Source: Hydrangea macrophylla
Lineage: Eukaryota; Streptophyta; Magnoliopsida; Cornales; Hydrangeaceae
Assembly: GCA_033977485.1 (NCBI GenBank)
Contig: CM066982.1
Span: forward strand, 38,108,218 to 38,172,217
Direction: 5' to 3'
DNA: 64,000 nt
How positions within the stretch are numbered: position 1 is the first letter of the stretch; each line of letters opens with the position of its first letter. Below, piece by piece: positions 3,785 to 58,406 of the stretch. The translations under genes were made by a program, and so were the position numbers. The notes beneath the pieces are model-generated. The model ran no database searches. It worked only from the letters and a program-made list of their open reading frames with translations, and had not been told where the DNA came from.

Positions 3785-3933
3785 CAATCGATTGACCAAA
3801 ATGGCAATTGATTGGAAATAATGTCAATCGATTGAACTTAATGGCAATCGATTGATAATAATGTCAATCGATTGAATCTCATGGCAATCGATTGGAAAAT
3901 ATCCAATCGATTGGATCCAATGCCAATCGATTG
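3785..3933. promoter_or_regulatory. CAATCGATTG palindrome array, LTR of A (distal block)
   Basis: Eight copies of the 10-bp palindrome CAATCGATTG (one changed to CAATTGATTG) start at 3785, 3805, 3825, 3845, 3865, 3885, 3904 and 3924. The spacing is 20 bp with one 19, close to two helical turns. The array recurs at 9322-9470 in the other LTR. Regular phasing suggests binding by a dimeric protein, but this is inference. In element sense it lies downstream of the other array and of the TA-rich tract. Confidence 0.85.
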
Positions 3934-4123
3934 AACTCTGTCTTCTTCCTCGAAACTGCTGGTTTTATTATGAAAACGATGGGGTTCCTCTTTCCTCCTC
4001 ATGCACGTTATTATACACACATAAACATCACAAAACAAACCTCTTGAATGAGTTAATAAACTCACCTCTCCCGGCGATCCGTTGACGGCGTCCCGAGCTC
4101 CGCGGCGGCGGCTATGGTGAATT

Positions 4124-4290
4124 CTCTCTCTCTCTTTCTTCTCGGTCTCTCTGTCTGTCTCTTCTTTCTCTCTCTGGTCTCCTCCTCCTCCTCTCCTTCT
4201 TCTTCTCCTTTTCCTCAACCCGAGAGTGTGTGTGTGTGTAATATATATATACAATATATATGTGTGTATATTATATATATGAGAGTATGC
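4124..4290. repeat. CT-rich and GT/TA microsatellite in the A LTR
   Basis: A CT-rich tract (4124-4210) is followed by a GT run and by alternating TA (4228-4290). It recurs at 9661-9827 with small length differences. In element sense the TA-rich part (CATATATATAATATAC around 4270-4285) follows the 4414-4618 motif array and is a possible TATA region for the LTR, though the low complexity makes this weak. Confidence 0.6.
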
Positions 4291-4413
4291 AACTTTCTCT
4301 CCCAAGGCTGCCAAAACTTGGCCCAAGGCCACAAATGAACAAGTATACATAAGGGTTAAGAGTGCCACACGTTCAAAGTTGAAGGAAAGAAGAAAATGTT
4401 TCTCAGGTTATGT

Positions 4414-4618
4414 CAATCGATTGAGACACAAGTCAATCGATTGAGAACATATATTTGTAGTCAATCGATTGGAATAATGTCAATCGATTGGGATGAATGG
4501 CAATCGATTGATAAACTGCCACGTCATGAATTCAGGTCGGTCTGATGGCAATCGATTGAGAACTATGTCAATCGATTGGGATGAATGTCAATCGATTGGA
4601 ATGAATGTCAATCGATTG
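4414..4618. promoter_or_regulatory. CAATCGATTG palindrome array, LTR of A (promoter-proximal block)
   Basis: Nine copies of CAATCGATTG start at 4414, 4434, 4462, 4481, 4501, 4549, 4569, 4589 and 4609. Most gaps are 19-20 bp, with one of 28 and one of 48. The array begins about 80 bp from the 5' end of the LTR in element sense, so it lies in U3, upstream of the TA-rich tract at 4240-4285. The copy in the 5' LTR is 9951-10155, with one unit degraded (CAATTGATTA). Confidence 0.85.
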
Positions 4619-4701
4619 GAAACTCAAACTCACCAAAGACTAAGGAAAGTACAAGGGATATATATATACAATATATATACCTGAAAATACAGGGTATTAC
4701 A

Positions 4702-5858
4702 TCATCCACCACTCATCAAAAGATTTCGTCCTCGAAATCTGAAGCAGTAGCCCCTCAAATAAAAACACAAATCATCTCGGAAGACATACTCTAAAATGCT
4801 CAAGTTCTCGTTTTACATAAATGATCACATCAGCGGCCAAAGGGTTAAGTTCTAAACACGCGATGCAAAGTTATCAACGATCTATAAGTGCTAGGGTTAC
4901 AACTATCAATCCTCTGGTTAGCTATATGAAAATTCGTATGTCGAACTTCGAGAAAAGGTTCTAGGTAGCATAATCTAATCATCTTACAACATCTGAAACG
5001 GCTAGTCTTCGAACACACAAGGTTCCTCCCTCAGGTCAAACTCTACGGTGTGAGGGTTCTAGTGATCAAGTGTTCTAATCTCATCTAAGTAGTAGCGAAG
5101 CGTTGCCGTCTACTCTGGTTTCGAAGATGCTTCACACTGTGTTGACGATGTCTCTACTGCATCATCAGTTGACTGTCTCCTCCCTCTGAACTTCTTGTTA
5201 TGATGGTTAGCGTCCTCGGTCGGCCTCTTGTTGTACACGATATCCTTGTTAACTCCCGTGTTGTCACCATCATCCTTTAGTATGCTGACTTGAAAACGTT
5301 GTGACTCTAACATCGTAGTTGTTGATTCGAACTTCCTCATGTGTCTCCAAATTCTCACGTATTATTAATATAATCATCTCTCGAGGTTGTACCATCCGTT
5401 GAATAGTCATTCTACTTCCACGTACTAATCAAATAGGTTATACAGGACTACATACTGATATCGTGAGTCGTTCTACTACAAAACATCTCGACTAGATAAA
5501 AGTAATAGGCGATCGGTGTCGAAAAGCATTCCTCTGTGATACTCTTTTGAAGTTCTGGTGTTGTCTCTGCGTTACTAGTATCCTCTCCAATAGTTGGCGT
5601 AGTCTTTCGATAGGGAGGCAAATGATGTCTTATAAGGATGCAATAGAAGTCATATGGGATGCAATTGATGTTATAACCATTCTTGGAAACTATTGTCATA
5701 GACGATTATTGATCAGTGCCAAAGGGGTGTTTGGGTATCTACAATTTATGGTGTAGGCTAATCCTCTTACAATCAATCAAATGGATGTAAAACTTCCTTC
5801 AATATCGGGATCATATGTAATACATGATGTAGGTGATAAGTGTTGTACCTTTTGTCCA
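4702..5858 (-). other. Element A region between gag and 3' LTR; no gene recognised
   Basis: In an autonomous Ty3/gypsy element about 4 kb of pol would lie here. Only 1157 bp is present, and no protease, reverse transcriptase or integrase motif was found in any frame. An 82-codon minus-strand frame (5110-5358) is rich in charged residues and has no recognisable domain. The bases next to the LTR (4702-4716) read GATGAGTGGTGGATGA on the minus strand, a purine-biased stretch that could be the polypurine tract. Confidence 0.6.
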
Positions 5859-6998
5859 TCATCCTTGTCTAAGTTGAGACCAAGCACTTGTTCGACAGGT
5901 TCGTCCTTGTGGTACTTGTTGCAACGGAACATTGTGTTGCATCTCTAGTTCTGGACAAAACTTACGGACATGACCAAATTTACCACAGTCAAAACACCGT
6001 ATTCCCCGTCCATTAGATTTCTTTACCGTTCTGCATTCTTGGGAATGGTGTCCCGGTACTCCACAATTGTAGCAGATATCTCGTTCTCTGTGCTGTGTTG
6101 GAGTCGTCATTAGTTTTGATTCTTTCTGGTCGTTTCCCATCCTCTTACGCTTCTGGCGGTTGCATATGTAACTTCTCTCTGTGTTTCCTTGTTGAACTTG
6201 GTTAGCTGCCAACACAACCTGACTGTCTCTTCCTCTCTGATCCATTATGAAAAATTGATCGTTCCCTGGAAATGCTTGATCAAAGTGTTGTCCTTCACTA
6301 ATCTGAGTGTCGTCTTCCAGTTTCGTTGCCATTTCTACCAAAGCTTCGAAAGATTGATCTAAATGTCCTATAGTCATATGACGAATATGCGGAACTAGTC
6401 CTTGATGATATCTTTTGATCTTTCTTCTTGGTGTATCAATCATATGCGGTGCAAATCGTGATAGCCTCTCGAATTGAGTTGTATATTCGGGCACTGTAAA
6501 ACTACCTTGAATTAATTGGATGAACTCCATTTCCCTTTTGTTCTTCTCAGATTCTGGAAAGTACTTTTCTAGAAATCGAATCTTGAATGATTCCCAAGTC
6601 ATCCTTCCTACAGCTTCTTCACCTATCGTAGCTTTCACTGTGTCCCACCAATCTGCTGCTGAGAACGTCAGTTGAAATACGGCCAAATGTCTTTTCTCAA
6701 GGTCAGTACATCCAAGTACCTCAAATATCAATTCTATCTGTCGAATCCATTCCTCAGCTTGCCATGCTCCCGTTAATCCGGTAAAGGTTCCTGGTTGAAG
6801 AGCACGAAATTCCTTTAGCAGCTTGACTCTCGTTTGTCGTACCGGTGCTCCATTGCCGATGACACGATCTGCATGATTTATAACTTGTTCCATGCGACGG
6901 ATGAAAACTCCAATCATTCCTGTTGGATCTATCTCAGGAGGTACTATATCAGATACTCCATTCAGCTGGCCCTGGTTTCCTCGAGTCGTCCTAACCAT
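5859..6998 (-). CDS. gag: Gag of element A (capsid and two zinc knuckles)
   Basis: The 379-residue protein is uninterrupted. Residues about 70-220 form a retrotransposon gag (capsid) domain, with the aromatic block SAADWWDTVKATIG and the pattern WESFKIRFLEKYFP typical of plant Ty3/gypsy capsids. Two CCHC knuckles follow: CYNCGVPGHHSQEC near residue 306 and CFDCGKFGHVRKFC near residue 337. Both have C-x2-C-x4-H-x4-C spacing for RNA binding. The frame stops shortly after the second knuckle with no protease fused to it. The start at 6998 gives MVRTTRG, a usual length before capsid. Gag packages element RNA in cytoplasmic particles. An intact gag without pol suggests it is still used, with enzymes supplied by a related autonomous element. 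Two knuckles suggest a chromovirus relative, but the clade is not certain. Confidence 0.9.
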   Translation of the reverse strand: MVRTTRGNQGQLNGVSDIVPPEIDPTGMIGVFIRRMEQVINHADRVIGNGAPVRQTRVKLLKEFRALQPGTFTGLTGAWQAEEWIRQIELIFEVLGCTDLEKRHLAVFQLTFSAADWWDTVKATIGEEAVGRMTWESFKIRFLEKYFPESEKNKREMEFIQLIQGSFTVPEYTTQFERLSRFAPHMIDTPRRKIKRYHQGLVPHIRHMTIGHLDQSFEALVEMATKLEDDTQISEGQHFDQAFPGNDQFFIMDQRGRDSQVVLAANQVQQGNTERSYICNRQKRKRMGNDQKESKLMTTPTQHRERDICYNCGVPGHHSQECRTVKKSNGRGIRCFDCGKFGHVRKFCPELEMQHNVPLQQVPQGRTCRTSAWSQLRQG

Positions 6999-7688
6999 AA
7001 CGAGTGCTGGTAGGGTTCAGTGTTGCTACCTACAAATGAAAAACTATTCGGTCAGACGCATTCTATCTTACAGCTCAAGCAAAAACATGCGGTAACAAAT
7101 ATATAGTACCACTATATAACACGATCACATCAAGTAATACGAATACCTCACATAAATAATAATATTAACCACAGAGGTCAGTCTACCTATCAGGTACGCT
7201 TAAATGTATCTATGCTCAAGACGAAACTACAACCTCTACGCGTAACGTCAAATCTCAAACATTCTATTTCTATTCTCAAGTTCCAACTACGAGTACCGCC
7301 CAACTAACATGTGAGACCACTCAACTAACATGTGGCTCAAGGTAACAGGACAATCTTATCCTTATCCTCTTTCTATTTCTAGGACATACTGACTGTTCTG
7401 ACATCGCTCAGGAATTCATCAGCGTCTAACATCCAACGGCTCTATATTTAGGATCTCCACCACCACAACTAACTCTCGATGTCTGTTCTCCGCGAACTCA
7501 GCTATCCAAATTCTTATTGGTTCCAACAGTTACCACCTTCCAAAGAAACATCCTCAGACGGATTTTTCCAACCTCTTATCTGCGTGACAAGATAACAGTT
7601 CTATCTCATCTCAGCTAATCCTCATGCTATCGATATTATCTTATAACTCGGGTTCTAATCACAAAAAGACAAGCGGTTAACAACTAAA
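6999..7688 (-). other. Untranslated leader of element A
   Basis: About 690 bp between primer site and gag start. No ORF with recognisable content and no obvious repeats. It would hold packaging and dimerisation signals, but none can be pointed to from sequence. Confidence 0.55.
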
Positions 7689-7706
7689 ACCTAGGCTTTG
7701 ATACCA
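7689..7706 (-). other. Primer-binding site of A, initiator tRNA-Met type
   Basis: On the minus strand the site begins TGGTATCAAAGCC, complementary to the 3' end of plant initiator tRNA-Met (GGCTCTGATACCA) with one mismatch. It starts seven bases from the LTR end (7714). It fixes element orientation and shows which LTR is the 5' one. Confidence 0.85.
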
Positions 7707-7713
7707 AAAATCC

Positions 7714-10238
7714 TGTCACGCCCCGGAGCAGCATAAATAGGGAAAAATAAATTTCCTTTATGGGTCCATAGGGAATGACGGGTGAATAACCGCATTGTCA
7801 TCTAATCAAACCAACAAACACCACGATAGGGAGGATGCTATTCATAGAACATAACTTATTAACATAATCAGAGGCTACAGCGGAAATATAAAAGGTTTGG
7901 AAGCAACAAATGCCCAAGTACCAATTATAAAAGTCTACTAAATCTATTACAACAGCTGGCTTAGGGTCTGAAGCCTATAATAATAATAACAGCAGTACAA
8001 CAGATAAAAACTAACTATTACAAAGCGGAACTTCTTCGTCTTCAAGCCTTTAGCTCCACGTCCGGCAAAACATCAGTCTCCCGTCCTCAATACCTGCCAA
8101 GCTCTAGACATTGGAATGTCTAGGGCATAAACGCCATCAGCTTCGAATATAAAGCTGAGTGAGTACATTAAACAACACTCCTCACCGCTATTGTTCAGCA
8201 TCTTAAAATGCGGTTAATCTCTTATCAATGACGTCACTCACGGACATAGCAGAGGTCTCATTAAACTATGCATGAATTCATCGATAACAAGAAACCGATT
8301 AAATGAACTCAATAATAAAGATCATAGTATAAATATCTCATCACGTATTCACCAAATCCATGAATGTAACCGTACAACCACCCATGCATCTACCTTTACG
8401 TCGGGACGCTGAATCCACGACTGAACATTAATCCCATCGTATACGTACTCACATTCATACCTCTATCCATCTCTGTATCCATACATCAATACCATATTAC
8501 AAATCTGTGTCCATTCGTCGATACAATTCTGCCAATCGGAATCACCCGACTAGACAGCAGGTCCCACAATCCCTTGATAGGGTTACCGGTCGTCTACACG
8601 GTACCACCTATCTGTAAACGATAGAACGGCACATCGGACGTCTTCAATGATGCGTATACCCTCACTGGTCGTCTACACAGCTGAGAATACATTAGAGCAC
8701 TAGCCGGACGTCTTTAACGGTACACTGGACGTCTTCAACAGTGCATACGCATCACTGGACGTCTTCAACAGCGAGAGGCGCACTAGGAACTCTAACCATC
8801 CCACGTCCACCCGACTCGTCAGCCGTTGATCCCACGGATCCAAAGTATACATATCTCATTATTCCACATGAATCACATATCCCATTTCCATCATATCTTC
8901 TCATCTCTTCATATCAATATCCCATTTCTCATCAGATTCTCTTACCTCTTCACATCACTATCCCATACATGCTGACACATGTTGTGAAATGCTCATATAC
9001 TAAGTACAGGAAATACCACATGCTCTGTATTCAACATATCTACTTATTAATTCGCTATTAACATGCTATCGTGTTCCGTTCTACTATTCAGTTTGACAAT
9101 TATATATGGCAGCTACTTAACCATTAGAGCATCTCATATCGACAGTTAATAATAAACAGCTCATCTTGTAACATTAACATAAACATCATATAAGGCTAAC
9201 GTAGTATCATGTTGACTAAGAACATATCCAATATCATATATGGTACAACCATTAACAGCTTGGGTACATTACAACCAGCTCATAACATATAACAATAGAT
9301 AAACAACATTCTTCTCTTACCCAATCGATTGACCAAAATGGCAATTGATTGGAAATAATGTCAATCGATTGAACTTAATGGCAATCGATTGATAATAATG
9401 TCAATCGATTGAATATCATGGCAATCGATTGGAAAATATCCAATCGATTGGATCCAATGCCAATCGATTGAACTCTGTCTTCTTCCTCGAAACTGCTGGT
9501 TTTATTATGAAAATGATGGGGTTCCTCTTTCCTCCTCATGCACGTTATTATACATACATAAACATCACAAAACAAACCTCTTGAATGAGTTAATAAACTC
9601 ACCTCTCCCGGCGATCCGTTGACGGCGTCCCGAGCTCCGCGGCGGCGGCTATGGTGAATTCTCTCTCTCTCTTTCTTCTCGGTCTCTCTGTCTGTCTCTT
9701 CTTTCTCTCTCTGGTCTCCTCCTCCTCCTCTTCTTCTTCTTCTCCTTCTCCTCAACCCGAGAGTGTGTGTGTGTGTAATATATATATACAATATATATGT
9801 GTGTATATTATATATATGAGAGTATGCAACTTTCTCTCCCAAGGCTGCCAAAACTTGGCCCAAGGCCACAAATGAACAAGTATACATAAGGGTTAAGAGT
9901 GCCACACGTTCAAAGCTGAAGGAAAGAAGAAAATGTTTCTCAGGTTATGTCAATCGATTGAGACACAAGTCAATCGATTGGGAACAGATATTTGTAGTCA
10001 ATCGATTGGAATAATGTCAATCGATTGGGATGAATGGCAATCGATTGATAAACTGCCACGTCATGAATTCAGGTCGGTCTGATGGCAATTGATTAAGAAC
10101 TATGTCAATCGATTGGGATGAATGTCAATCGATTGGAATGAATGTCAATCGATTGGAAACTCAAACTCACCAAAGACTAAGGAAAGTACAAGGGATATAT
10201 ATATACAATATATACACCTGAAAATACAGGGTATTACA
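7714..10238 (-). repeat. 5' LTR of element A
   Basis: 2525 bp, TGTCACGCCCC to GGTATTACA on the plus strand, the same length as the 3' LTR and differing at scattered positions (for example GAGCAG versus AGCAG context near 7724, and a degraded palindrome near 10086). The motif arrays are at 9322-9470 and 9951-10155. GCTGT at 10239-10243 is the second copy of the target duplication, after which the LTR of H resumes. Confidence 0.92.
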
Positions 10239-44122: not shown

Positions 44123-44190
44123 AGATGCCTTTTATCAGATTATTTGCGTATGCAGCAGAAACGGGTTTTGAACCCTAGCATTAGGTTTAG

Positions 44191-45538: not shown

Positions 45539-48211
45539 ATGTCCAATAATTCTATTGAAGGAATTTTTGGAAATCCTTTCTACCGTTCTGACTCTGATAG
45601 TTCCATTAACCCGATAGCCACTCCAACTGAATCAATGGATGATCATCAGAGTGAAAATGGTGACAATGTTGTGGTACCAATTGATGAGGCGCTACGTCCT
45701 CTTTGCGATCTCATGCAACCAGAACACGCACCTACGCCCTCTTGCATTCAAATCCCACCGCATAATGGCGAATTTCAGTTTTGCAATGGGATGATCCAAC
45801 TGCTTCCCACCTTTCATGGGATGGAAAGTGAGAAAGCGTACTTGCATGTCATAGATTTTGAGGATGTTTGCAAAACATTCTCGCAAAATTGTCCTAGGGA
45901 GGTGACGCATCTAATGTTATTCCCTTTCACTTTGAAAGATAAAGCGAAGGCGTGGCTCCACTCCCTCAAACCTAATTCAATTTTCACCTGGCATGCGATG
46001 AGCACCGCGTTTCTAAAGAAATTCTATCCTACTCGCATGACCACAGACCTTCAACGTCAAATCAATTCCTATAAACAAAAGAGCAATGAAACATTCACAC
46101 AAGCGTGGGAGCGTTTCAAAGATTTGCTTCTCTCGTGCCCACACCATGGGTTTGAGAAATGGCAAACTATCAGCTTCTTTTATCAAGGATTGAATGGTGA
46201 AACGAAGAAGTTGGTAGAAACTATGAGTTCCGGACCATTTCTACGTAAAAACACCGAAGAGGCTGAAGCCCATTTCGAATGGTTAGCCGAATACGCTCAT
46301 GAATGGTCAAATTCTGACAATGTCTCACGCTCACAGATATCCTATGTAGAAGAGAAAAGCCTCTACCAACTAACCAGTGAAGATCACCTCATGACTAAAT
46401 ATGCCGAACTGGCAAAGAAGGTAGAGGAGTTAAGCATGAAAGGAGAGAGCTCTAGGCAAGTTATGCCTGAGGAACCATGCGGCACATGCAGCATGTTGGG
46501 ACATACAACTCAATATTGTCATAATGTGCCATATTTTCAAGAGCAGGCCCCTATGGATATGAATGCCATGCAAGGTTTTCGAGGGGCGGGAAATTCCAAC
46601 AATAACTTTCACAGTAACAATAGATGGAATCACCCCGGTTTTGATTGGAGAAATAATGCTGGGATCCAAAATCACTATCAACAGCAGCCCTACAACAACA
46701 ATCAATATCAAGGGCAAAACAATAGGCCGTCCCATCAATACAATCAAAACAGAACCAATAACTACAACCAAGCTCAACCCTCCAATGCACCACAGACCAA
46801 TACCTATGTGCCTCCGCACAAGAAGGTACAAGAAGAAGAGCCACTTGCTAATGCCAATCTAACGCAGCAACTCATACAGATGATGAGTAGAATGTCTGCC
46901 ACGTTAGAAAGGATAGATGCACGGCAAGAGGGTTCAGGAGGAACATTCCCTTCCCAACCACTTCCGAACCCCAAGGGACATAACAATGGTCCTAACAATC
47001 AAGAACATGCTAAAGCCGTGACTACATTGAGAAGTGGAAAAATTATTGAGAAAAGCATGCCTCTGTCTACACCCGAAGTGTACAAAGAGGAGGAAGTGGT
47101 GGAAAATGAGCTTGAGCAACCATCTACTCAAGAGGAGGAGCCGTCTACTAATGACAGGGCAATAAAGGCAAACATTGAAGCTCCTAGAGTAGAGGAAGAA
47201 GTTGAGCGAAGGCCTGGAAAGGAATCTGTGAAGGATGAACCACCAAAATGCCCTTTTCCTGCACCTTATCCTCAACGGTTGAACAAACCCAAGAATGAGA
47301 CAAAGAATCAGGAGTTTCTGGAATTATTTAAACAAGTCAAAATTAACCTTCCACTCCTAGATGCTATCAAGCAAGTGCCGGCCTATGCAAAGTATCTCAA
47401 AGATATATGCACGGTCAAGAGAAGGCAAAGCGTGAAGAAACATGCTTATGTCGCATGCCAAGAAAGTGCGATCATTCAAAATGAGTTGCCTCCAAAACTC
47501 AAAGATCCCGGTACACCTACTGTCTCATGTAGAATTGGGAATCAAAGGATAGATAACGCACTCCTCAATCTAGGAGCAAGCGTGAACCTGCTGCCATATT
47601 CAGTCTATAAACAGCTAGGGTTGGGTGAACTCAAATCCACTGGAGTCGCTTTGCAATTGGCAGACAGATCTGTGAAGTACCCTAGAGGGGTGTTAGAGGA
47701 CGTCCTTGTCCAAATAGACTCTTTTGTCTTTCCGGTTGATTTCGTGATATTGGACACAGAACCTGTGTCTAATCCTGGTGCACATATCCCGGTTATCTTT
47801 GGACGTCCATTCCTCAACACTATTGATGCCACAATCAAGATTAGGAGTGGTATCATGAGTATCGTATTCGGGAACATGACATTGAATGTCAAAATTTTTT
47901 CTAATCCCCGACCTGAGGAATACGATGATGAGGAAGAAATTCATTACATTGACACGGTCATTGAAGATGAAGTTGACTTGGTCGACTACAAAGATCCTTT
48001 GGAAGTTGTGATGACTCAATTTAGCGATATCTATCAGCCTGCAGAGTCAACTCCATTGGATGCTGACCTGAACCAGACGTGTCTTATGATGGATACGATA
48101 GAGGAGGATAGAGCAGAATGCATGTGGGTAATGCAATATGAACAATTGCCTCCTAAAACTAAGTTGGCAATGCCTTCTAGTTTTCAGTTTTCGGAGTTAG
48201 AATTAAAGTAG
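45539..48211 (+). CDS. gag-pro: Gag-protease of element D, open frame with altered protease active site
   Basis: 890 residues. The capsid (about 80-240) has LLPTFHGMESEKAYLHVIDF and LFPFTLKDKAKAWLHSL. The CCHC knuckle CGTCSMLGHTTQYC is near residue 313. A Gln/Asn-rich linker and an acidic segment follow. The protease near residue 676 reads ALLNLGASVNLLPYSVYKQL, where the related E protein has ALLDLGAS: the catalytic aspartate codon is changed to AAT (Asn), which should abolish cleavage. Later VIFGRPFLNT is kept. The frame ends with TAG at 48209, and pol continues in the same frame, so gag-pol may once have been one polyprotein. Start at 45539 is the first ATG after the leader. Confidence 0.9.
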   Translation: MSNNSIEGIFGNPFYRSDSDSSINPIATPTESMDDHQSENGDNVVVPIDEALRPLCDLMQPEHAPTPSCIQIPPHNGEFQFCNGMIQLLPTFHGMESEKAYLHVIDFEDVCKTFSQNCPREVTHLMLFPFTLKDKAKAWLHSLKPNSIFTWHAMSTAFLKKFYPTRMTTDLQRQINSYKQKSNETFTQAWERFKDLLLSCPHHGFEKWQTISFFYQGLNGETKKLVETMSSGPFLRKNTEEAEAHFEWLAEYAHEWSNSDNVSRSQISYVEEKSLYQLTSEDHLMTKYAELAKKVEELSMKGESSRQVMPEEPCGTCSMLGHTTQYCHNVPYFQEQAPMDMNAMQGFRGAGNSNNNFHSNNRWNHPGFDWRNNAGIQNHYQQQPYNNNQYQGQNNRPSHQYNQNRTNNYNQAQPSNAPQTNTYVPPHKKVQEEEPLANANLTQQLIQMMSRMSATLERIDARQEGSGGTFPSQPLPNPKGHNNGPNNQEHAKAVTTLRSGKIIEKSMPLSTPEVYKEEEVVENELEQPSTQEEEPSTNDRAIKANIEAPRVEEEVERRPGKESVKDEPPKCPFPAPYPQRLNKPKNETKNQEFLELFKQVKINLPLLDAIKQVPAYAKYLKDICTVKRRQSVKKHAYVACQESAIIQNELPPKLKDPGTPTVSCRIGNQRIDNALLNLGASVNLLPYSVYKQLGLGELKSTGVALQLADRSVKYPRGVLEDVLVQIDSFVFPVDFVILDTEPVSNPGAHIPVIFGRPFLNTIDATIKIRSGIMSIVFGNMTLNVKIFSNPRPEEYDDEEEIHYIDTVIEDEVDLVDYKDPLEVVMTQFSDIYQPAESTPLDADLNQTCLMMDTIEEDRAECMWVMQYEQLPPKTKLAMPSSFQFSELELK

Positions 48212-49336
48212 CTACCCAAAGAGCTAAAATACGAATTCCTAGGGACTGGGAAAACCTACCCTGTGATCATTTCATCTGCTTTAACTCATGAACAGGAAGG
48301 TAAGTTAGTGCAAATGCTAACCAAGCATAAGGATGCTATGGGATGGACGATTGCTGACCTCAAAGGCATAAGCCCATCCATATGCACTCACAAGATATAT
48401 CTGGAGGAAGACGCTAGACCTTCAAGGAAAATGCAAAGGCGTCTGAATCCCAACATGCAAGAAGTAGTTAAAAAGGAAGTGCTCAAACTACTTGATGTTG
48501 GGATGATTTATCCGATATCTGATAGTCCTTGGGTTAGTCTAACCCAAGTGGTTCCAAAGAAAGCAGGCATAACGGTCATCCCAAACAAAGATGGTGAATT
48601 GGTACCAACACGTGTTCTCACTGGATGGAGGATGTGTATTGACTACAGAAAGTTAAATACTGTGACCCGAAAGGACCATTTTCCTTTGCCATTCATGGAT
48701 CAAATGCTAGAACGTGTGGCAGGTCACAAGTATTACTGCTTTTTGGATGGATATAGTGGATACAACCAAATTGAAATTGCTCCTGAAGATCAGGAGAAAA
48801 CCACATTCACTTGTCCATTTGGTACATTTGCCTACCGTCGAATGCCATTTGGCTTATGTAATGCACCGGCTACCTTTCAGCGGTGCATGCTAAGCATATT
48901 TAGTGACATGGTCGAAAACATCCTTGAAGTCTTCATGGATGATTTTTCAGTGTTTGGCCATAGCTTTGAAGATTGCCTCAGCAATCTCGAGTAGGTATTA
49001 ATGCGATGTGAGGACAAGCACCTAGTTTTGAATTGGGAAAAGTGTCACTTTATGGTGACCAAGGGAATAGTCCTCGGCCATATAATCTCCGATAAAGGAG
49101 TCAAAGTGGATAAGGCCAAAATCGACATAATCTCAAATCTACATGTCCCCCGTACAGTGAGAGACATCCGTTCATTCTTGGGGCATGCGGGATTTTATCG
49201 TCGGTTTATCCAGAATTCAGTGCAATCTCTCGACCCCTTTGTCAACTTCTTGTCAAAGATGCACCATTCGAGTGGTCAGAGAATTGCCAAAAGTCCTTCG
49301 AGGATCAAAAAGAGCTCCTCACCTCCGCACCTATAA
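48212..49336 (+). pseudogene. rt: Reverse transcriptase of element D
   Basis: In frame with gag after TAG. It has GWTIADLKGISPSICTHKI, LDVGMIYPISDSPWVS, GWRMCIDYRKLN, CFLDGYSGYNQIEIAPEDQ, MPFGLCNAPATFQRCM and VFMDDFSVFG, in which MDD is the catalytic motif. A TAG at 48992 interrupts it. The thumb/connection (LGHAGFYRRFI) follows in frame. A frameshift near 49250-49350 leads into the RNase H frame. Confidence 0.9.
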
Positions 49337-49356
49337 TATAGGCACCCGACTGGAGT

Positions 49357-51093
49357 TTGCCTTTCGAATTAATGTGCGATGCTAGTGATTACGCCATTGG
49401 CGCGGTCCTAGGCCAGAGAAAGGACAAGAAGCCATATGTGATATACTATGCCAGCCGAACTTTAAATGAAGCTCAAATGAATTATACAACTACTAAAAAG
49501 GAGCTGCTGACTGTAGTATTCGCCTTGGATAAGTTTAGGTCTTATCTGATAGGGTCACCAATCGTCTATTTTACAGATCATTCGGCCCTCAAGTATCTAT
49601 TGTCCAAGAAAGACGCTAAACAACGGCTCATTCGCTGGATACTCTTACTCCAAGAGTTCGATATAACGATTAAAGATAAAAAGGGAGTAGAGAATATGGT
49701 CGCTGACCATTTATCTCGGTTAACTTTTGTTGACAACACTGAACCCACATCAATAAAAGACGAATTCCCAGATGAGCAGCTGATGACTGTTTCGGGTTTG
49801 CCCTGGTACACTGATATAGTAAATTATCTTGCCACGGGAGAAACCCCAAGTCATTGGTCCAAACCAGATAGGAAGCGGTTCCTCTCTTTCGCACGTCATT
49901 TCTTCTTCGATGACCCGTACTTATTCAAGTATTGTGCTGATCAGGTCATCAGACGTTGCGTCCCTAATGAGGATATAACTGTAATTTTAGCCTCCTGCCA
50001 CTCTGAAGCGTGTGGTGGCCATTTTTCCTCTCAAAAGACCGCACAAAAAGTCTTATATAGCGGATTTTATTGGCCCACCATATTCAAGGACGCTTATGCT
50101 TTCTGCAAAACGTGCCAACGCTGTCAACAGCTTGGTACAATCTCAAAAAGGAACTCCATGCCCTTAACCCCTATTATCACGATTGAAATATTCGATTGTT
50201 GGGGCATAGATTTCATGGGCCCGTTCCCTAAATCTAATAATTGTGAATACATCCTCCTAGCTGTGGAGTATGTGTCAAAATGGGTGGAAGCAATATCAAC
50301 AAGACGCAATGACCACAAAACAGTGATGTCCTTTCTTAAGGAACACATTCTATCGCGTTTTGGAACCCCAAAAGCCCTAATAAGTGACCAAGGCAAGCAT
50401 TTCTGCAATAGGCCTTTGGAGTCACTCCTCAAGAAATAGGGGGTCAATCACAAAATTGCTCTCGCCTACCATCCACAAACAAACGGGCAAGCAGAGTTGG
50501 CTAACCGAGAAATTAAGCATATTCTTGAAAAGACTGTTAGTTTCAACAGGAAGGATTGGGCTTACAAACTGACTGATGCATTATGGGCTTACCGCACGGC
50601 TTTTAAAACGAATCTGGGGATGTCTCTATATAGGCTAGTTTACGGAAAAGCATGTCATTTCCCTGTAGAAATTGAACACAAAGCTTATTAGGCGACACGC
50701 TCATTGAACTTTGATATTAAAGAGGGAGGGCATCTTCGAAAACTCCAATTGGCTGAATTGGAAGAAATACGTCGAGACACATACGGCAATGATCGATTAC
50801 ATAAGGAAAGGTTGAAGGCTCGCCACGATAGAACAATTTGTCGTAAATCATTCGAGCCGGGGCAGAAAGTCTTGCTGTACGACTCTCGCCTCCACCTTTT
50901 CCCAGGCAAACTCCGATCTCGGTGGACAGGACCGTTCATAGTCAAATCTGTCTTTCCACATGGGGCGGTCGAGCTGATAAACCCCAAGAACGATGCAGTT
51001 TTCAAGGTCAATGGCCAAAGGCTAAAACCGTTCCTGGAAAATTTCCAAACAGAGGCTGAGTTCATCCAACTGGATGAACCCAACTACTCTTGA
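49357..51093 (+). pseudogene. rnh-int: RNase H and integrase of element D
   Basis: RNase [21 protein letters not shown] (catalytic D), [33 protein letters not shown] and ADHLSRL. Integrase: zinc-binding residues in CHSEACGGH and CKTCQRC, core [19 protein letters not shown] and [14 protein letters not shown], giving D, D and E. The C-terminal part has EPGQKVLLYDSRL and RWTGPFIV. TAG stops occur at 50437 and 50689, both in one frame. The end at 51093 fits the usual length. Confidence 0.9.
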
Positions 51094-52509
51094 TCACAAA
51101 CGTTAAGCGTTTCTACACGTTGTTGTTGTATATCTTTACTTTTGATGTTTTTCAATCTTTTAATTCTTTTTATCTTTCTTTACAAGTGATTTCAATTCTA
51201 ATCTGCTGTTGCATATTATCTACCCTATGCAGGCTTTTCAATATGCGGGATGACGACGTTCATTCTATAGGGTCATGGGCTGATTCTGAATATCCGAACC
51301 CACCTTGGACTGCTGACGAGATAGCATTCTGCTTATCTCCTTATCAAAGACCAGGGGCAGATGATGTTGTGGACCTGACCCATGGGTACATCCCTTATGA
51401 TCCTACTCTCCTTCAGATTAATCCCTTTGAGCATATGGACCTTTCTGAAGAAGAAGGAGAGCCAGAAGGGTACGTTGTAGGAGAAGTGGATGACGCACTA
51501 TTGGAGCAATGGGAAAATGATTCCATGTGGGAGCCATGGGAAGAAGAGGACCTACAAGATGTGGTGCCCGAACGCCACAATGCGGTATTCATTTTTGTCG
51601 ATGACTTCCTCGTCATCACAGTGGTTCTTTACATTTATGTGCACCTGAGCTATTTGCTGTTCCGGATTCAATGCCCCTTACCAGCTAGTGCATTTTGGGA
51701 ATCCATGCCAATAGTGAGGTTGGAACTGAGTCACATCTCTTTGTACTTTTGTTTCTGTTCCTTGTTTTTTTCTTTTCGTGTTTAATCCGTGTTTCTTGTG
51801 TTCTGTTATCCTAATTTCGTTTTGTTTGTCTTTTGTTTTTCTTTCTTTGTCCAGGATTGTCACTATGCTTTTCAATGGTATTCCGGTATTCCTTCCACAT
51901 CAACTGATTCATGGTTTTGGGCCCTACATAAGGCCCCCACACACTCCGCCGCAAGAGGACAGTCCGTTGCGCACTTATACTCCTTTATCTGTGTCTCCAT
52001 CCGGATCACCTCTTGCATGGGCTTTCAATTCCTTAGAGAGTTCAGACTCGCTCGATGATGTCCTTGCTGCTTTCCGATTGTTCTGGGAAAGGGAATCATC
52101 ACATTTGGACCCCACTTTTGAAAATTCGGCTAATTATGAAGCGATTGTGGAAGAGGAAATCTTTATGCTCGAAGAATAGTGCTGCATTTCAGTTGTTTCC
52201 GTTCATTTCATCTTTCGTTTATCAATTGGAGTGTAATCCTTGACAGAATTTTATAAGTTTTAGTTTTATTTTTGGTTTTCTTTAGTTAAATAAGGTCTTA
52301 AACACCATTGGGGGTAATAATTGTGCAATATGGAAGCTATTAAAAGGATTTATTTATATCAAATTGCAATTTTCTATTATGAGGCAGCGTTTTTGGCTTA
52401 CATGTCCTGTACTGCATTGTTTTATCATTTTTACTGTATGTCCAGAATAATGTTGGCTAGTTGGGGGTGCATAGTTTACTCATTCTGTGATATCTTTTTA
52501 ATTTCTGGT
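51094..52509 (+). CDS. Two small acidic ORFs between pol and the large accessory ORF of D
   Basis: ORF a runs from ATG 51244 (MRDDDVHSIGSWADSEYPN) into an acidic region with WENDSMWEPWEEEDLQDVV. Its last part, hydrophobic and beyond about 51590, may be intron. ORF b starts at 51865 (MLFNGIPVFLPHQLIHGFG) and ends at 52179. Each start lies just after a good splice acceptor: TATGCAG before 51233 and TGTCCAG before 51856. They may be exons of one spliced transcript or separate products. No domain is recognised. A G-rich tract, TTGGGGGT, follows at 52309-52316. 52320-52509 shows nothing. Confidence 0.45.
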
Positions 52510-52619
52510 TTCGATCGATCGACCTTTCCTCGATCGATCGACGATGTCATATCCTCGAGCGCTTGAACAGTTCTCAATCGATCTAACGTTCGATCGATCG
52601 AAATACCTCGATCGATCGA
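52510..52619. promoter_or_regulatory. Paired motif array upstream of the accessory ORF of D
   Basis: Six copies of the LTR motif start at 52510, 52529, 52554, 52573, 52589 and 52607: steps of 19, 25, 19, 16 and 18 bp, nearly the same plan as array 1 of the LTR. A TATA-like GTATTTAAATG (52626-52636) follows directly, then a CT-rich leader. Confidence 0.85.
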
Positions 52620-52625
52620 GAATTG

Positions 52626-52636
52626 TATTTAAATGA
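52626..52636 (+). promoter_or_regulatory. Candidate internal TATA box of D
   Basis: GTATTTAAATG lies seven bases after the array and about 190 bp before a consensus splice donor. It would start a separate mRNA for the accessory ORF. Confidence 0.45.
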
Positions 52637-52819
52637 GGCGTCCAGCGTACACTTCATCAGTCTCTTCATCTCCCTCACTCTCTCTCAAGCGATCGGCGAC
52701 AGCAGGTTTAGGGCGATTCTCGAGCTTCGGGTCCCATTTTTGAAGGCTTCGGGTCCCACTCCTTCCCCCCTGCATCATTCTCTTCATCGCCCTCATCCCC
52801 TTGGCACACATCTCCCGAG

Positions 52820-53182
52820 GTAAGGCCACGAGCTCCCCCTCTTTCCATTTTCGTTTAAATCTCAATGGGGGTGCCCCCCATTGGTCGTTTGACCATTCTC
52901 TTATTAGTCTTGCTCTTGTTACATGTGTTTTGTTGTTTTCCGTTGCTTTTCCGATTCGTCTTCTCGTTGCTGCGCATCTCTGTGCTCGATCGATCGAGAA
53001 GCTTCGAGCAATCGACAATTCTTGTGTTTCTCGATCGATCGAGAAAATTCGAGCGATCGAAGTCTTGCATTATTCGATCGATCGAAACACGTTCGATCGC
53101 TCGAACTACGGCAGTGGCAGTTTTCTATTTTCTTTTTAGTTTCCTGTTTGTAATTGTCGTTTTCTTTTCTTTTCCATTTCAG
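52820..53182 (+). other. Probable leader intron before the accessory ORF of D
   Basis: Donor CCCGAG|GTAAGG and acceptor TTTCCATTTCAG|G, with the start codon ten bases after the acceptor. A fourth six-copy array (52985-53104) lies inside it. Confidence 0.6.
52985..53104. promoter_or_regulatory. Paired motif array inside the leader intron of D
   Basis: Copies start at 52985, 53003, 53030, 53048, 53073 and 53092: steps 18, 27, 18, 25, 19. Again six copies in three pairs. Confidence 0.83.
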
Positions 53183-53192
53183 GGTGTTCACA

Positions 53193-54665
53193 ATGAACCC
53201 TGTTACAGGGTATCACAGGGAGAAGCCTTTTGACCTAGCCATTCCTGACCCGGTCCCACATCATGGTTTTTGGCATACTCCCGACCGCCAGTGGTTCACA
53301 CGCTACTTCCAGTCCAGGAAGGTCATGATAGAGCGACCACTTGAGACGGCATGGCTCGCTACTCCCTGGTATCTCGCCTGCCTCCGAGCCATGCCACACT
53401 GGTACGATTTTCTCTCTCAGGCGAAGAGAATGAATCTTTCGTGGATTCGCACGGCTTGCGCGACGATGATTAGAGATCCCGATGCCGCTTTCACACTGCG
53501 ATCATTCTTCTGCGGTTAGGAGATTGTGTTCAGTCCGGCTACCGTCTCAGCTGCTCTAGGAGTCCCGGAGGTCCCCGATTGTGTATGCCCGCACCGTGCT
53601 GGCACGCCAGTGCTCTCATCCACTGCTGTTATCCGAGAGCTTACCGGGGATGCTTTACCGAGCTGGGATGGTAAGGCCCTTATTGCTGATGTTTATTTGA
53701 CTGATAATTATCATATGCTCCACCTTGCTTTGAGCAACTGCCTGTTGGTGACCTCCTACCGGGAGAAGATTGCTGCCTGGTATGCTCATGTTTTATATGC
53801 CATCGGGACGGGGTTACCAGTCTGTTTGCCTCGCCTATATATTGACTTCATGAGGCACCCCACTTGCTACATTACTGCCAAGAAGCACCTGAAAGGTGCT
53901 TGGGCCATTCACAGGGTGATCGAGCAGGCTGGCCTCCTTCCCTTACCTAATGATGCGACTTCGCAGGCTCGCAGTCGATTTGGCGAGACAACTTCTCGCC
54001 GTTCAGATGCTCAGAGGAGAAAAAGGAAGGGTAAGGGGAAAGCGAAAGTTGGAGAGAAAAGGAGGAGAGCTGATGGCACCGATATAGAGGGTGCAGCTTC
54101 AGGGACACCGACAGAGGCTAAAGAGCTTGATTCTGACGATGAGGTTGATCCTCTGGTGGAGGTTGCACAGTTTGAGCTGAGACAGCAATCTCAGGCTCAA
54201 ACTCAGGCCCAGGGAAAGTCTTCGTCATCCGTGCCTCTTCCGACGGTTCATGAGCTATTATTGGAGGAGAGGGAGGCTCGGATCAGACTCAAGGGTCGGG
54301 TGGCTCACATGACGACATTACTTGAGGCTATCTTGATTCAGCTGGGGGTTGATCAGTCCTTACATACACCTCCACCTCATGCCACTCCTGCTACCGCACC
54401 AGTTACCACTGACCCACCTCCCGCTACTCCCCATACTGCACATCCTACAGCTGATCCATCCACTTCTGAGACCCTACCACCACATACTGATCCTATTCCA
54501 CCATCGTCCTCGGCGGCACCACCTTCTGTGGAGCCCCCACTTCCACCACCTCCAGTCATCACTGAGAGTGACCCGACGACGGCTAGTACTGTTGCTGAGG
54601 GTGGAGTTGCGGATACATCCGATGCGCCGATCGAGATATTATCAGATGTTGCGGAGGATGTTTAG
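53193..54665 (+). pseudogene. Large accessory ORF of D in the env-like position
   Basis: About 490 codons with one TAG (53517-53519). The N-terminal half has FWHTPDRQWFTRYFQSRKV, AWLATPWYLACLRAMPHWY, EIVFSPATVSAALGVPEVPD and LIADVYLTDNYHMLHLALSN, a pattern I associate with the putative plant transposon protein family found in Athila-like elements. A strongly basic stretch follows (RRKRKGKGKAKVGEKRRRAD), suggesting nuclear location or nucleic-acid binding. Then come an acidic region, a short predicted coiled coil (ELLLEEREARIRLKGRV) and a Pro/Thr-rich tail. No signal peptide or convincing membrane segment is seen, so it does not look like an envelope glycoprotein. The family call needs a profile search. 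Confidence 0.65.
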
Positions 54666-56766
54666 GTCGTGATTTTACGAGTGTTTGGAGAGTTTTGTTG
54701 TATTTTCTTTTTCTTATTTCTATCTCTCTCCTCTTATGTCTTTTGGATTTTAGTTCTGTGGATTATATGTGTATTTTGGCTCTGGTAGTTGTTTAGGTTT
54801 GGTTACATTTTATCACTATTCTGTCCGTTGCATTGTCTTATCTTTCCAGTGATATCTTTATTTATAAGATCATATGCTTATTTTACCTTTGTATGTCTTT
54901 CGTTTGATCTTGGTTGCTTGGAGATTGTATATGTCTTTACAGATTGTTTCGCTTGCAGTCGTTGCGTTGCTTTAGCAGGTGATATCTTTTTATTTATTGT
55001 TGAAAATCCACTTCTGAGGTCATTGCGATTTTCAGTTGGGGGTGGGATTTAAATAGATTATCACCTGAGCATGTTTACGTTATTAGCAATCTAATTTACT
55101 TCATTGCACATTTTGTTATTATGAACTTTATTAGTGGAATACTTTTAAATATTCTCTCTTACTTAACCGCTATCAAGCGATGATACATTCATGTTAATCT
55201 CATCCTTTTACGAATTACATTCACGTGTTTTTCTAGTGTCACTAAGACAAATGCATGTGTTGAACATTCTAGTATCCAACATCCATTTGCACGCATTAAT
55301 AGCTATGCTGAAGACTTAAATAAGAGTTAATACGACTGTTATGCTTTAAGGAATAAATAGTGGAAACTAATGACCCTTAGTGAGCTTTTGAACCCAATCT
55401 TCAATTCTGAGGGAATTGTCACATTAATTCGAGTTATTTTTCTTGAATATTCTTGAAATTCGTTGAATAGTCTCAAAAACATTCTTCATTTAGGCTGTTT
55501 ATTAGAGGAGAACGTTCAGGATTTACCAATTAAAACTCAATGAACACTGAAGTGCTAAAACTAAGAAGTTAAGAAAAGGATTTAAGCCATCGTTATTCAT
55601 GCCTTACCTTTTTCATATACCTGTATCAACATCCAAGAATCTCTTAACTCCATACCGATTAAATATTGCCAATATGGAAGCCCAAAACCCTTCGTCTGAT
55701 ACTCTACCCTCTATAAACTCAATTGCACATCTAATGTGATCAAAATTATTGAAGTATGCGACAAGAAGGGAGTAGTGTGGGAAGGATGTTATAAAAAGAT
55801 TTTTGCAAGGAGATATTGAATATATATCTCCAAGTTAAAAAAAAAAAAAAAAAAAAAGAGAAAAGGAAGGAAGGAGGAGTAAAAAGAAATAAAAGTATAT
55901 GAGAATAGAGGATGGTTGGAATAAAGAAGAAATAAACTAGTCACTATCGCAAGCTAAGGATGTGCAATTCTTGCCTCTCTTATCTTCACTCCACTGAATA
56001 AAAGCCGAAAAGTCAAAGTCTTAATGATTTTTAACGACTTGGTTTGAACATGAACGTGTACTTTGAGTATCCACGGTATTTTGCTCCTCTAGTAAGTAGT
56101 ATTCTTTTCATGAGACTATATTACTCTAAATGTTCGTCCTTTATTGAGTTCGGTGTGAAACACTAGTAGCCAGAACATCACTCTTATCAAAGTTTTCACA
56201 CCATGAGCGATCATGTCTAAACAAGTTTCTGTGAGATGTTCATTTTTGAGTGCAGACCCATGTGAGAATCGAGTTGAATAGTATGATAGTCTAAACAATT
56301 CTTAATAAAGTTGGATGCATAACTGTTGATTTCACACACACACGGATACATGAATGTAATGCATATGTATATTTATCTTGGTGACATGAGGAACATGTGG
56401 ATTTCTTCATGGTTTGTATGAGGTTGATATCTTATGTGAAGCTAAATTTATAGTCGAATGGGAAAGAATGTGTATAAGTTTTTCTATATCTTTTTGAGCT
56501 TAAAAATCTAGAATTTTGTGGGTATATTCACTGCAAACCCTCACGAGACAACACTCGTCCACTAGGGGAACCTAGGGGTTTAACGGCTTGTTGCAATTGC
56601 TTAATGCAACCGCGATTCCTGCGAAAGTGAGTTAGGTAGTGTCTCTTTCTAAATTAGATTAGTTTGAATTAGTTTTATTTTTGTTACTCTAGTCGGTGTA
56701 GTAGTAGCTAGCTTGTTTTATTTTCGCTTTATTGATAGGGACTAGCAATTCGCTAGTTGGGGGTTG
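54666..56766 (+). other. 3' untranslated region of D
   Basis: About 2.1 kb. A G-rich tract, GTTGGGGGTGGG (55036-55047), resembles the polypurine tract and could be a second initiation site. An A run (55838-55860) precedes GA-rich sequence. Block 56530-56625 is conserved with E. The polypurine tract itself is AGTTGGGGGTTG at 56755-56766. No gene; 54789-55052 is an open frame without recognisable content. Confidence 0.7.
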
Positions 56767-58406
56767 TGACAAGTGGGGGTATTTGTAAAATACAACCGCG
56801 CAAAAAGAGGAAAATACACTAGAAAAGTATACAATTCCCCTGTTTATCTGCAGTTTGAATTACAATACTAGTTTCTACATAAATTGATTAAACTATGATA
56901 AGTGGTATTGTTTTAGTGATTATTTGTGCAGATTATTGCTGCTGTATATAAGAATGAAGAATGTTGATAACAGGAAGTGCTTGGTCCTAATGAAGACAAT
57001 GCAAAGCTAAAATACAGGGTTCGAGCGATCGAGAAGGTTTCGAGCGATCGACATTTCGATCGATCGAGTGGAGTTCAAGCGATCGAAGTTTCTGGAAGTT
57101 CAATCGATCGAGAGTTGTTCGATCGATCGAAGATGCCTTTTATCAGATTATTTGCGTATGCAGCAGAAACGGGTTTTGAACCCTAGCATTAGGTTTAGGC
57201 TATATATAATCATTTTGTAAACGTCCAAGAGGACGCAAAAACTTTGTTTCATCAGTTTTCATAGAGGATAGAGAGTTTTTCTTTATGGTTTTGTAGGTTT
57301 AATCAAGATTTACCATTGTAGCTTGGATTCTTGAAGTTTAATAGTAGTTTCTTCGTTCCAGGTTACTTCGCTTTATTTCTGCTTACATTCTGCTCTTATT
57401 CATTCGTAGTTTAACCTTTGATATTGTAGTATTACATGCTAGATAAATTAAAATCCTTGATTTTTATAGTTTTAATGAAATTTTTCCAAATAAACATGCC
57501 TTTAATGAACTTTTACTTTAAAATAAATCTGAGACTTCCCAGACCATGTCTGAGTAGTCCGGGGTTGGGGAATCGCGATGAAACCGTGATTTCAGACCTC
57601 TGCCATGCAATATCTTTATTCCTGTGTTCGATCGATCGAATGTAGTTCGATCGATCGGAACAGAGACATAGTCGAGCGATCGAAGATATTTCGATCGATC
57701 GAGAGATGACGAAGTTCGATAGATCGAAAGCGCGTCGATCGATCGAGACCTCAGATTCTTGAGGACATCTAATACAGTATTCCAAGACTTTCTACTTTAC
57801 TGATTCGTTATCAAACTGTCCCCAAATGCTCAGTTTGTCAAAACAGTCTTTAAACGTTAAGCCTTAAGGCATTTTCTTTCAATACATTTTGCAAACCACC
57901 CCAATGCTAATACCATTGTAGGTGAGAGTCTTAACTATTGAATTAAACCACCTTTGTGTATTTCAAATTTAATTGTGATGATATAGTCCCGGCCATGAAA
58001 GGACTGTTGATTCTATATCCTTAGAGAAGTACGGGATACTGTAGAAGTTGCTCTCCGTTGAGTTTAATTGCATTTGCATGGTAGATGGTTGAGTCATGGT
58101 GGATTCGCGTGATCCCAACACTTTCTTTTATTAAGAGAAAACATTTTCAAATCTTGTTTTAGTTAAATAGTTAATCATTAGTTTATTTAATTTAGTTGCT
58201 TTTAAGTTTAGTAGTTGTTAATTGTAGAACTTTGTGTTCTACGCCTCTCTTGAAATATTGAATTTTCTTTTCTTTTAGAGTCTAATCTAAGTAATTCATC
58301 TCTCATCCTTCCCTGTGGGATCGACCTGGTCTTACCAGTTACTACTTGCACGTCTACCTACACTTGGGTATAGCACACAAGCGTACACAGAAAAATATTC
58401 GTGTCA
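56767..58406 (+). repeat. 3' LTR of element D
   Basis: 1640 bp copy of 43759-45400 with motif arrays at 57020-57130 and 57627-57746. All 12 motif copies keep their spacing. It is followed by CAGCC (58407-58411), the second target-duplication copy with one change. Confidence 0.93.

What the first reader, a model, noticed from the sequence alone, without database searches (positions are those of the whole stretch)
3785..57746. Four different retrotransposon families each carry arrays of a family-specific palindromic motif near the promoter
A has CAATCGATTG, C has GCGGCA-TCAGTGA-TGCCGC, D has TTCGATCGATCGA and E has TCGCGCGAGCG. The motifs are unrelated in sequence but alike in design: short, self-complementary, 6-17 copies, phased at one or two helical turns, mostly upstream of a candidate LTR TATA box. 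Elements I/H have a weaker 21-bp repeated version. The lineages are a possible chromovirus (A), Tat (C) and Athila (D, E), so common descent of the arrays is unlikely. Convergent evolution of binding sites for dimeric proteins, or hairpins feeding small RNA, are possible explanations. I know of tandem promoter motifs in single families (for example Tnt1), but not of this multi-family pattern.
Basis: partly seen in the sequence, partly recalled or inferred. Interest (0 to 1): 0.88.

Follow-up and report, generated by a model that had tools for sequence, protein, structure and literature searches.

The report
Palindrome arrays at plant retrotransposon promoters
Several plant jumping-gene families each carry their own short mirror-like DNA word, repeated at a regular beat near the promoters of the element, including those of extra genes inside it, which looks like a docking strip for a control protein that each family recognises separately.

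Summary
The arrays are real and far beyond chance. Copies checked keep them: 10 of 10 other A LTRs, 8 of 8 D LTRs, 5 of 5 D interiors. Between D and L053, spacers fall to 33-38% identity, sites stay 88-95%, spacing holds; in C, sites are not better kept than the LTR. L017 shows D's layout with another palindrome. Best reading: clustered sites for a dimeric DNA-binding factor at the element's promoters; its own accessory protein is the leading, unproven candidate. Similar boxes are known in Sireviruses and were called Sirevirus-specific (PMC2829016); VANDAL/VANC is the nearest mechanism (PMC5735166). New variant of a known kind.

The parts
9951..10155 (-). A, 5' LTR upstream array: 9 CAATCGATTG-type sites (8 exact), spacing about 20
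9322..9471 (-). A, 5' LTR downstream array: 8 sites, 20-bp spacing, after TATATA strings at 9816-9784 and a GTGAGT donor-like site at about 9604
   Evidence: intron inferred
3785..4618 (-). A, 3' LTR copies of both arrays (3785-3934 and 4414-4618)
43064..43342 (-). C, 5' LTR: two arrays of 4 and 3 sites, 21-22 bp apart, about 150 bp between arrays; CTATAAAAGG at 42936 chosen as TATA box
16555..16831 (-). C, 3' LTR copies of the arrays
18479..18583 (+). C-type array upstream of antisense gene 1 (PMD-like exon at 19774-20292 +); no TATA-like string found after it
22351..22436 (+). C-type array upstream of antisense gene 2 (TTTATA at 22505; sub-threshold DUF7745/PMD matches at 22288-22839 and 31942-32181, split by the E insertion)
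31462..31596 (-). E, 5' LTR array: 7 CGCTCGCGCGAGCG-type sites, 13/24-bp spacing, TATATAAA at about 31322
24291..24425 (-). E, 3' LTR copy of the array (end by LTR offset)
26784..27032 (-). E, internal sites downstream of gag-protease, 9 sites
44012..44123 (+). D, 5' LTR upstream array: 6 sites [19,16,19,25,19], before TATATA at 44193
44620..44740 (+). D, 5' LTR downstream array: 6 sites [19,25,19,25,19]
57020..57747 (+). D, 3' LTR copies of both arrays
52510..52620 (+). D, internal upstream array: 6 sites [19,25,19,16,18], before TATTTAAAT at 52626
52985..53105 (+). D, array inside the inferred leader intron (GTAAGG at about 52820 to TTTCAG at about 53182): 6 sites [18,27,18,25,19]
   Evidence: intron inferred from splice consensus
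53193..54662 (+). D accessory gene; frame has one stop at 53517-53519; second piece weakly matches PF20167 (E 0.006, 16.9 bits, cut-off 45); basic NLS-like stretch
2177..10238 (-). Element A, chromovirus-like, gag 5859-6998 the only ORF of 100 aa or more in its interior, TSD GCTGT
14115..43624 (-). Element C, Tat/Ogre-like, TSD CCATC, with E nested inside
23245..31774 (-). Element E, Athila-like gag-protease only, TSD GCGGG
43759..58406 (+). Element D, Athila, near-TSD CAGTC/CAGCC

Best explanation
Each array is a cluster of dyad-symmetric binding sites for a dimeric or oligomeric sequence-specific DNA-binding protein. The protein docks at a family-specific spacing beside the RNA polymerase II promoters of the element (the LTR promoter and the internal promoters of accessory genes, sense in D and L017, antisense in C) and turns them on or keeps them free of silencing. 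Shown: the sites, their family-specific sequence and spacing, their persistence in other copies, and better conservation than spacers in A and in diverged D relatives. Inferred: that a protein binds, that the boxes named are promoters, and that the effect is activation or anti-silencing. My preferred, less certain version (about 0.4) is that the factor is the element's own accessory protein (PF20167-type in Athila, a PMD-type protein in Tat), as VANC is for VANDAL; A (gag only) and E (gag-protease only) would then depend on partner elements.
For: Arrays far beyond shuffles and mirror control. Present in all copies looked at: 12 of 12 A loci (2 are the window's own LTRs), 8 of 8 D LTRs, 5 of 5 D interiors. 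Site/spacer identity: A .977/.793 and .993/.760; D interior window-L053 .95/.33 (27 spacer columns) and .88/.38 (16 columns). D's four arrays share the six-site rule although their spacers are unrelated beyond shuffles; in L052 and L053 the leader between the arrays does not align with the window's, yet arrays and spacing persist. LTR and internal sites share the motif in 4 of 4 elements where both were seen (C, D, E, L017; L017's LTR inferred). L017 repeats D's layout with another palindrome, next to a full PF20167 gene (E 7e-26). CpG observed/expected in LTR arrays 1.1-2.8 against .53-.88 in the rest of the LTR.
Against: No binding, transcription or methylation data. In the Tat family sites are not better conserved than the LTR around them (.72-.82 against .76-.82), nor in L006/L008 (.83 against .86); in the close copy L050 intron-array sites are no better kept than spacers (.90 against .92). 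The copies looked at are mostly close relatives (top-scoring hits). A canonical TATA box follows the internal D array in only 3 of 6 elements. For the self-encoded version: no accessory gene recognised in A or E; A's core motif recurs in the tobacco Sirevirus Tnd-1 (PMC2829016), which a host factor would explain; D's PF20167 match is below cut-off; its fold could not be predicted (pLDDT 48.6).
Confidence: 0.68

Rival explanations
1. Sites for ordinary host transcription factors: each family was captured by a different host dimeric factor that activates its promoters. (Overlaps with the general half of the best explanation; it is the rival to the self-encoded version.)
For: Same CAATCGATTG core in an unrelated Ty1/copia Sirevirus, Tnd-1, and in a divergent LTR here; no accessory gene recognised in A or E; Bousios 2010 found PLACE stress-factor matches.
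Against: Two Athila-type elements, D and L017, use different palindromes, each the same in LTR and internal arrays; dense regular arrays of one palindrome are unusual for host enhancers (general knowledge).
Confidence: 0.4
2. Transcribed palindromes act as hairpins that give small RNA or are by-products of host silencing, as proposed for maize Sirevirus LTRs.
For: Eight arrays fold strongly as RNA, z -5.3 to -8.7 against mononucleotide shuffles; Sirevirus palindromes are small-RNA hotspots (PMC5311732, PMC10760457 passages).
Against: Little covariation between arms: paired counts lie near independent expectation, at most 26 against 21.8 of 33 and 14 against 11.0 of 33 in C, 28 against 24.5 of 45 in D (invariant positions say nothing). 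Zero-gap palindromes make poor single hairpins; spacing and position are unexplained. Any palindrome array folds well, so the z-scores do not discriminate.
Confidence: 0.15
3. Neutral tandem-repeat turnover, with sites alike because they were copied recently.
For: Copy number varies (A downstream array 6-12); two sampled arrays look like ordinary tandem units (L006 9129, L010); tandem repeats are common between pol and 3' LTR (PMC11963269).
Against: In diverged D relatives spacers are near random while sites stay; no mirror-symmetric arrays outside the satellite-like repeat; same spacing rule in arrays with unrelated spacers.
Confidence: 0.07
4. The arrays are packaging, dimerisation or integration signals rather than transcription sites.
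For: A's and D's downstream LTR arrays could be in the transcript.
Against: Upstream arrays are outside the transcript if the TATA boxes are used; internal and antisense arrays sit at gene starts.
Confidence: 0.05

Closest known systems
Sirevirus repeated-motif (RM) boxes (Bousios et al. 2010, PMC2829016; section 9 read, other passages seen)
   Same: Short dyad-symmetric motif, 8-32 copies, family-specific, upstream of a TATA box, CpG-rich, extra copies before the ENV-like gene (77 of 79 linker copies)
   Different: Those are Ty1/copia and were called Sirevirus-specific, most with a CGG-CCG core; here Ty3/gypsy Athila, Tat and chromovirus-like elements, other cores, antisense genes, arrays both sides of the promoter, alternating spacing
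VANDAL/VANC anti-silencing (PMC5735166, PMC10398659; passages)
   Same: Family-specific short motif arrayed in upstream regions and introns, rapid copy-number change, related families use different motifs
   Different: DNA transposons; VANC21 motifs are arrayed in one orientation, not palindromic; no DUF1985 match in the accessory pieces scanned
Retand/Tat antisense ORFs and tandem repeats (PMC11963269, PMC7264820; passages)
   Different: In the passages seen no palindrome shared between LTR and antisense-gene promoters is described; C's scanned pieces match PMD, not TRP28
Athila aORF with PF20167 (sunflower, PMC11728184; passages)
   Same: Same domain as L017's and probably D's gene, 3' position, predicted nuclear signal
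   Different: No cis arrays reported in the passages seen

Membership tests
Sirevirus RM boxes | Palindromic motif in at least 8 copies per element | tested here: met
   A, C, D, E counting both LTRs and interior
Sirevirus RM boxes | CGG-CCG core | tested here: not met
   Absent from A and D motifs; present in L017 (CCGGATCGATCCGG); Tnd-1 also lacks it
Sirevirus RM boxes | Host element is a Ty1/copia Sirevirus | tested here: not met
   Ty3/gypsy-type gag/pol domains and PBS types in A, C, D, E
Sirevirus RM boxes | Extra boxes upstream of the env-like gene | tested here: met
   D and L017; 5 of 5 other D interiors
VANC anti-silencing | Family-specific motif arrays in non-coding regions incl. 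introns | tested here: met
   intron inferred
VANC anti-silencing | Element encodes a VANC (DUF1985) protein | tested here: not met
   Pfam scans of the accessory pieces give PF20167/PMD/DUF7745 only
VANC anti-silencing | Protein binds the motif and removes DNA methylation | not testable with these tools
   needs ChIP/EMSA and methylome
Athila (D, E) | Asp-type PBS, long LTR, gag-protease ORF | tested here: met
   no RT tree; E lacks pol and accessory ORF
Tat/Retand-Ogre (C) | Arg-type PBS and antisense ORFs between pol and 3' LTR | tested here: met
   RT tree not made; TRP28 domain not found in the 8 antisense pieces scanned
Chromovirus (A) | Chromodomain integrase | tested here: inconclusive
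   A has gag only; iMet-type PBS and CCHC gag fit

The most novel reading that the evidence does not exclude
Several plant LTR-retrotransposon lineages independently carry a self-recognition promoter system: an element-encoded accessory protein (PF20167 or PMD type, long filed as env-like or unknown) oligomerises on family-specific palindromes at a family-specific spacing beside every promoter of its own family, activating or de-silencing it; protein and motif change together, so families stay separate, and elements without the gene, such as A and E, parasitise the system.
Probability: 0.3. Interest if true: 0.9.

Novelty: new variant of a known kind. Interest (0 to 1): 0.74.

Why it matters
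What the extra genes of Athila and Tat elements do is an open question; a 2026 paper says that whether such ORFs modulate the epigenetic landscape 'remains to be investigated' (PMC12844716, passage). The arrays would supply the missing cis half: a short, defined DNA target next to those genes, with a different target in each family seen. That turns the question into simple binding tests. If the proteins bind, anti-silencing would be a general strategy of plant retrotransposons, not a VANDAL speciality, and would help explain how silenced families reach thousands of copies. Even if the factor is of host origin, the arrays show selection for a multi-site promoter grammar inside retrotransposons (A and D) and contradict the claim that such boxes are Sirevirus-specific.

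Tried and rejected
Protein-database search with D's accessory piece: 7993 candidates scored, none at E 0.001. PDB sequence search at E up to 1: one match at E 0.25, taken as chance. Single-sequence fold of the 381-aa piece: mean pLDDT 48.6, not interpreted. A and D pair patterns in viral contigs: 2 stretches each, not followed. Literal motif search in papers: 98 papers, 20 listed, none on LTRs among those titles. Motif-above-background conservation fails for C and for L006/L008. I/H repeats: not supported. RNA folding z-scores do not discriminate. L006 9129-9349 and L010 5115-5352 pass the strict scan but look like ordinary tandem units with a palindrome inside; without them the sample holds 8 arrays in 6 of 19 stretches. 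L023 was set aside as a satellite (12 palindrome and 15 mirror rows).

Could not be done: copies of C's antisense arrays, of E and of PF20167 genes genome-wide, because the genome search stopped answering.
Full report
WHAT IS THERE. The window is a nest of LTR retrotransposons from a 2.22-Gb genome held as G000 (window at C1:38108218-38172217). Self-comparison, termini, target-site duplications and Pfam give: A (minus; LTRs 2177-4701 and 7714-10238, 98.9% alike; TSD GCTGT; gag only), C (minus; LTRs 14115-17113 and 40711-43624; TSD CCATC; Tat/Ogre-like gag-pol), E nested in C (minus; LTRs 23245-24603 and 30416-31774, 99.7%; TSD GCGGG; gag-protease only) and D (plus; LTRs 43759-45400 and 56767-58406, 98.7%; CAGTC/CAGCC; Athila). 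PBS and lineage names are recalled, not from a call.

ARRAYS IN THE WINDOW. Sites and spacings: A has 9 and 8 CAATCGATTG sites in its 5' LTR, mostly about 20 bp apart. C has groups of 3-4 sites of a 21-bp degenerate palindrome 21-22 bp apart. D has four arrays of six TTCGATCGATCGAA-type sites (0-4 mismatches): LTR upstream [19,16,19,25,19], LTR downstream [19,25,19,25,19], internal upstream [19,25,19,16,18], intron [18,27,18,25,19]. E has pairs 13 bp apart with 23-24 between in the LTR; its internal sites are less regular. The LTR-upstream series of D read backwards is 19,25,19,16,19, nearly the internal-upstream series. The spacers of the four D arrays are about as alike as shuffles (scores within about 2 SD).

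POSITION. D's internal arrays bracket an apparent promoter: six sites, TATTTAAAT at 52626, leader, donor-like GTAAGG, second array, acceptor-like TTTCAG, then ATG of the accessory gene. C has the same motif before two genes on the antisense strand, one with a PMD match (E 4.9e-7, 29.7 bits, below the 34.9 cut-off). E has internal copies after gag. A and D LTRs have one array each side of the chosen TATA-like box; C and E have them upstream; other TATA-like strings exist (C at 43456 and 43211). Splice sites and TATA boxes are consensus readings by eye, not data.

CHANCE. A de novo scan (arms 6, at most 1 mismatch, gap 0-3, at least 4 similar copies in 450 bp) on window + 19 stretches finds 22 palindrome arrays; 10 dinucleotide shuffles give none of that size (two of 3 copies in one shuffle); the mirror-symmetry control gives 1, in the satellite-like repeat of C, which also makes one of the 22. 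The 20 stretches were taken at fixed places (20.0 Mb of 19 contigs, 60.0 Mb of C1); one, L023, is satellite and was set aside. Ten of the 22 arrays lie in 7 of the 19 stretches: L005 TCGACCGGTCGA [22,50,22], L006 D-type plus one tandem unit, L008 D-type, L010 GAGAAATTTCTC, L015 C-type, L017 CGGATCGATCCG twice, L022 C-type and CCAGTCGACTGG. Looser settings add, among others, a CAGATCGATCCG array in L008 with [22,50,22]. So a spacing of about 21 within and 50 between pairs recurs with three different palindromes (L005, L017, L022; L008's word is close to L017's).

OTHER COPIES. A: the stretch between its arrays has 4811 first-look candidates genome-wide, of which 40 were scored; all 12 loci cut out (10 besides the window's own) carry both arrays, with 8-10 and 6-12 exact sites. 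Among 8 rows sites are .977 and .993 identical, spacers .793 and .760, other LTR .893 and .949 (gaps left out). D: 6233 candidates, 40 scored; 8 of 8 other LTRs fetched have both arrays, the downstream one with the same five spacings in 8 of 8 (one has an extra site), the upstream one with 4-6 sites; site/spacer/other .955/.765/.922 and .961/.929/.911. D interiors: 5 of 5 have the upstream array, 4 with six sites and nearly the same spacing, one with five; the 4 that reach it have the six-site intron array. In two (L052, L053) the roughly 330-bp leader between arrays does not align with the window's, yet both arrays persist. Site against spacer identity for window-L053 is .95/.33 (27 spacer columns) and .88/.38 (16 columns); for the close copy L050 it is .99/.89 and .90/.92. 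A canonical TATA box is seen after the internal array in 3 of 6 (window, L049, L050). These copies are mostly close relatives, since the best-scoring hits were taken.

RESULTS AGAINST. For C, sites are no better conserved than their LTR (.72-.82 against .76-.82) although number and spacing largely hold in L015 and L022, whose LTRs are about 75-77% like C's. For L006/L008 motif .83, other .86, spacer .52; D's downstream array against L008: motif .86, spacer .78, other .69.

L017. This sampled stretch holds a gene with a full PF20167 domain (7517-8545 minus, E 7e-26). Upstream lies a six-site CCGGATCGATCCGG array [21,50,21,51,21 in + order], then TTTAAAAG, a donor-like AAGGTATGT, an acceptor-like TTTTTGTAGG and an ATG. 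Downstream, what I read as its 3' LTR (start after a G-run near 5552, Athila-like end near 4200; inferred) has a four-site array of the same palindrome before CTATAAGAGG; 5657-5772, just before it, aligns at 77% with the stretch before D's 3' LTR. Beyond the inferred LTR the stretch has a Ty1/copia RT (2183-3667), which I take as another element; if it were the same element, the Athila assignment would fall. On this reading two Athila-type families share the layout but not the word, and within each the LTR and the gene use the same word. The two accessory proteins share only 29% over 98 residues. With C and E this makes 4 of 4 elements in which LTR and internal arrays match. A divergent LTR-like stretch with A's palindrome (L001-L004) also has arrays either side of a TATATA block, spaced 20/25, and aligns with A's LTR in the arrays only.

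MECHANISM. Dyad symmetry with little arm covariation, regular spacing, loss of spacer similarity with kept sites, and position at gene starts point to double-stranded binding by a dimer that may oligomerise along the array. Family-specific words, next to a gene for a probably nuclear protein (D's carries a basic RKRK...KRRR stretch, read by eye; a sunflower Athila homologue has a predicted NLS, PMC11728184), favour a self-encoded factor. The host-factor rival stays strong because the CAATCGATTG core also occurs in tobacco Tnd-1 (Table 3 of PMC2829016) and because no accessory gene was recognised in A or E.

LITERATURE. PMC2829016 (section 9 and passages) reports palindromic boxes in 13 Sireviruses and says that they are absent from classic retrotransposons. 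PMC5735166 and PMC10398659 (passages) describe VANC. PMC11963269, PMC7264820, PMC11728184, PMC12844716, PMC5311732, PMC10760457, PMC12859917 and PMC13317346 were seen in passages. Bousios 2016 is known only through citations there (not held).

Noticed in passing
window 40652-40711: Beside C's 5' LTR the tRNA-like stretch runs about 57 nt (T arm and an anticodon-arm-like hairpin, by eye), longer than the usual 18-nt primer-binding site.
   Followed up: no
window 46046-46152 (-): Rfam snoR71 match, 48.5 bits against cut-off 40, inside D's gag region.
   Followed up: no
window 17571-17983 and L023: C's 121-bp tandem repeat is 77-78% like (best rows) a 60-bp satellite filling L023 (C19 at 20.0 Mb), so the satellite and the Tat element share a repeat.
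   Followed up: partly
window 26835-26872: 38-nt poly-T run between E's internal sites.
   Followed up: no
L006 2912-4407: About 1.5-kb solo-LTR-like insertion with a six-site D-type array and a TATAAATAG box, inside a pol-like stretch.
   Followed up: partly
window 19774-21324 (+): Antisense, apparently multi-exon gene in C with a sub-threshold plant-mobile-domain match; no TRP28, which PMC11963269 reports for most Retand elements.
   Followed up: partly
L011 8616-8695, L013 1583-1691: CCTGGG..CCCGAGG palindromes every 29-30 bp in two stretches that align with each other.
   Followed up: no
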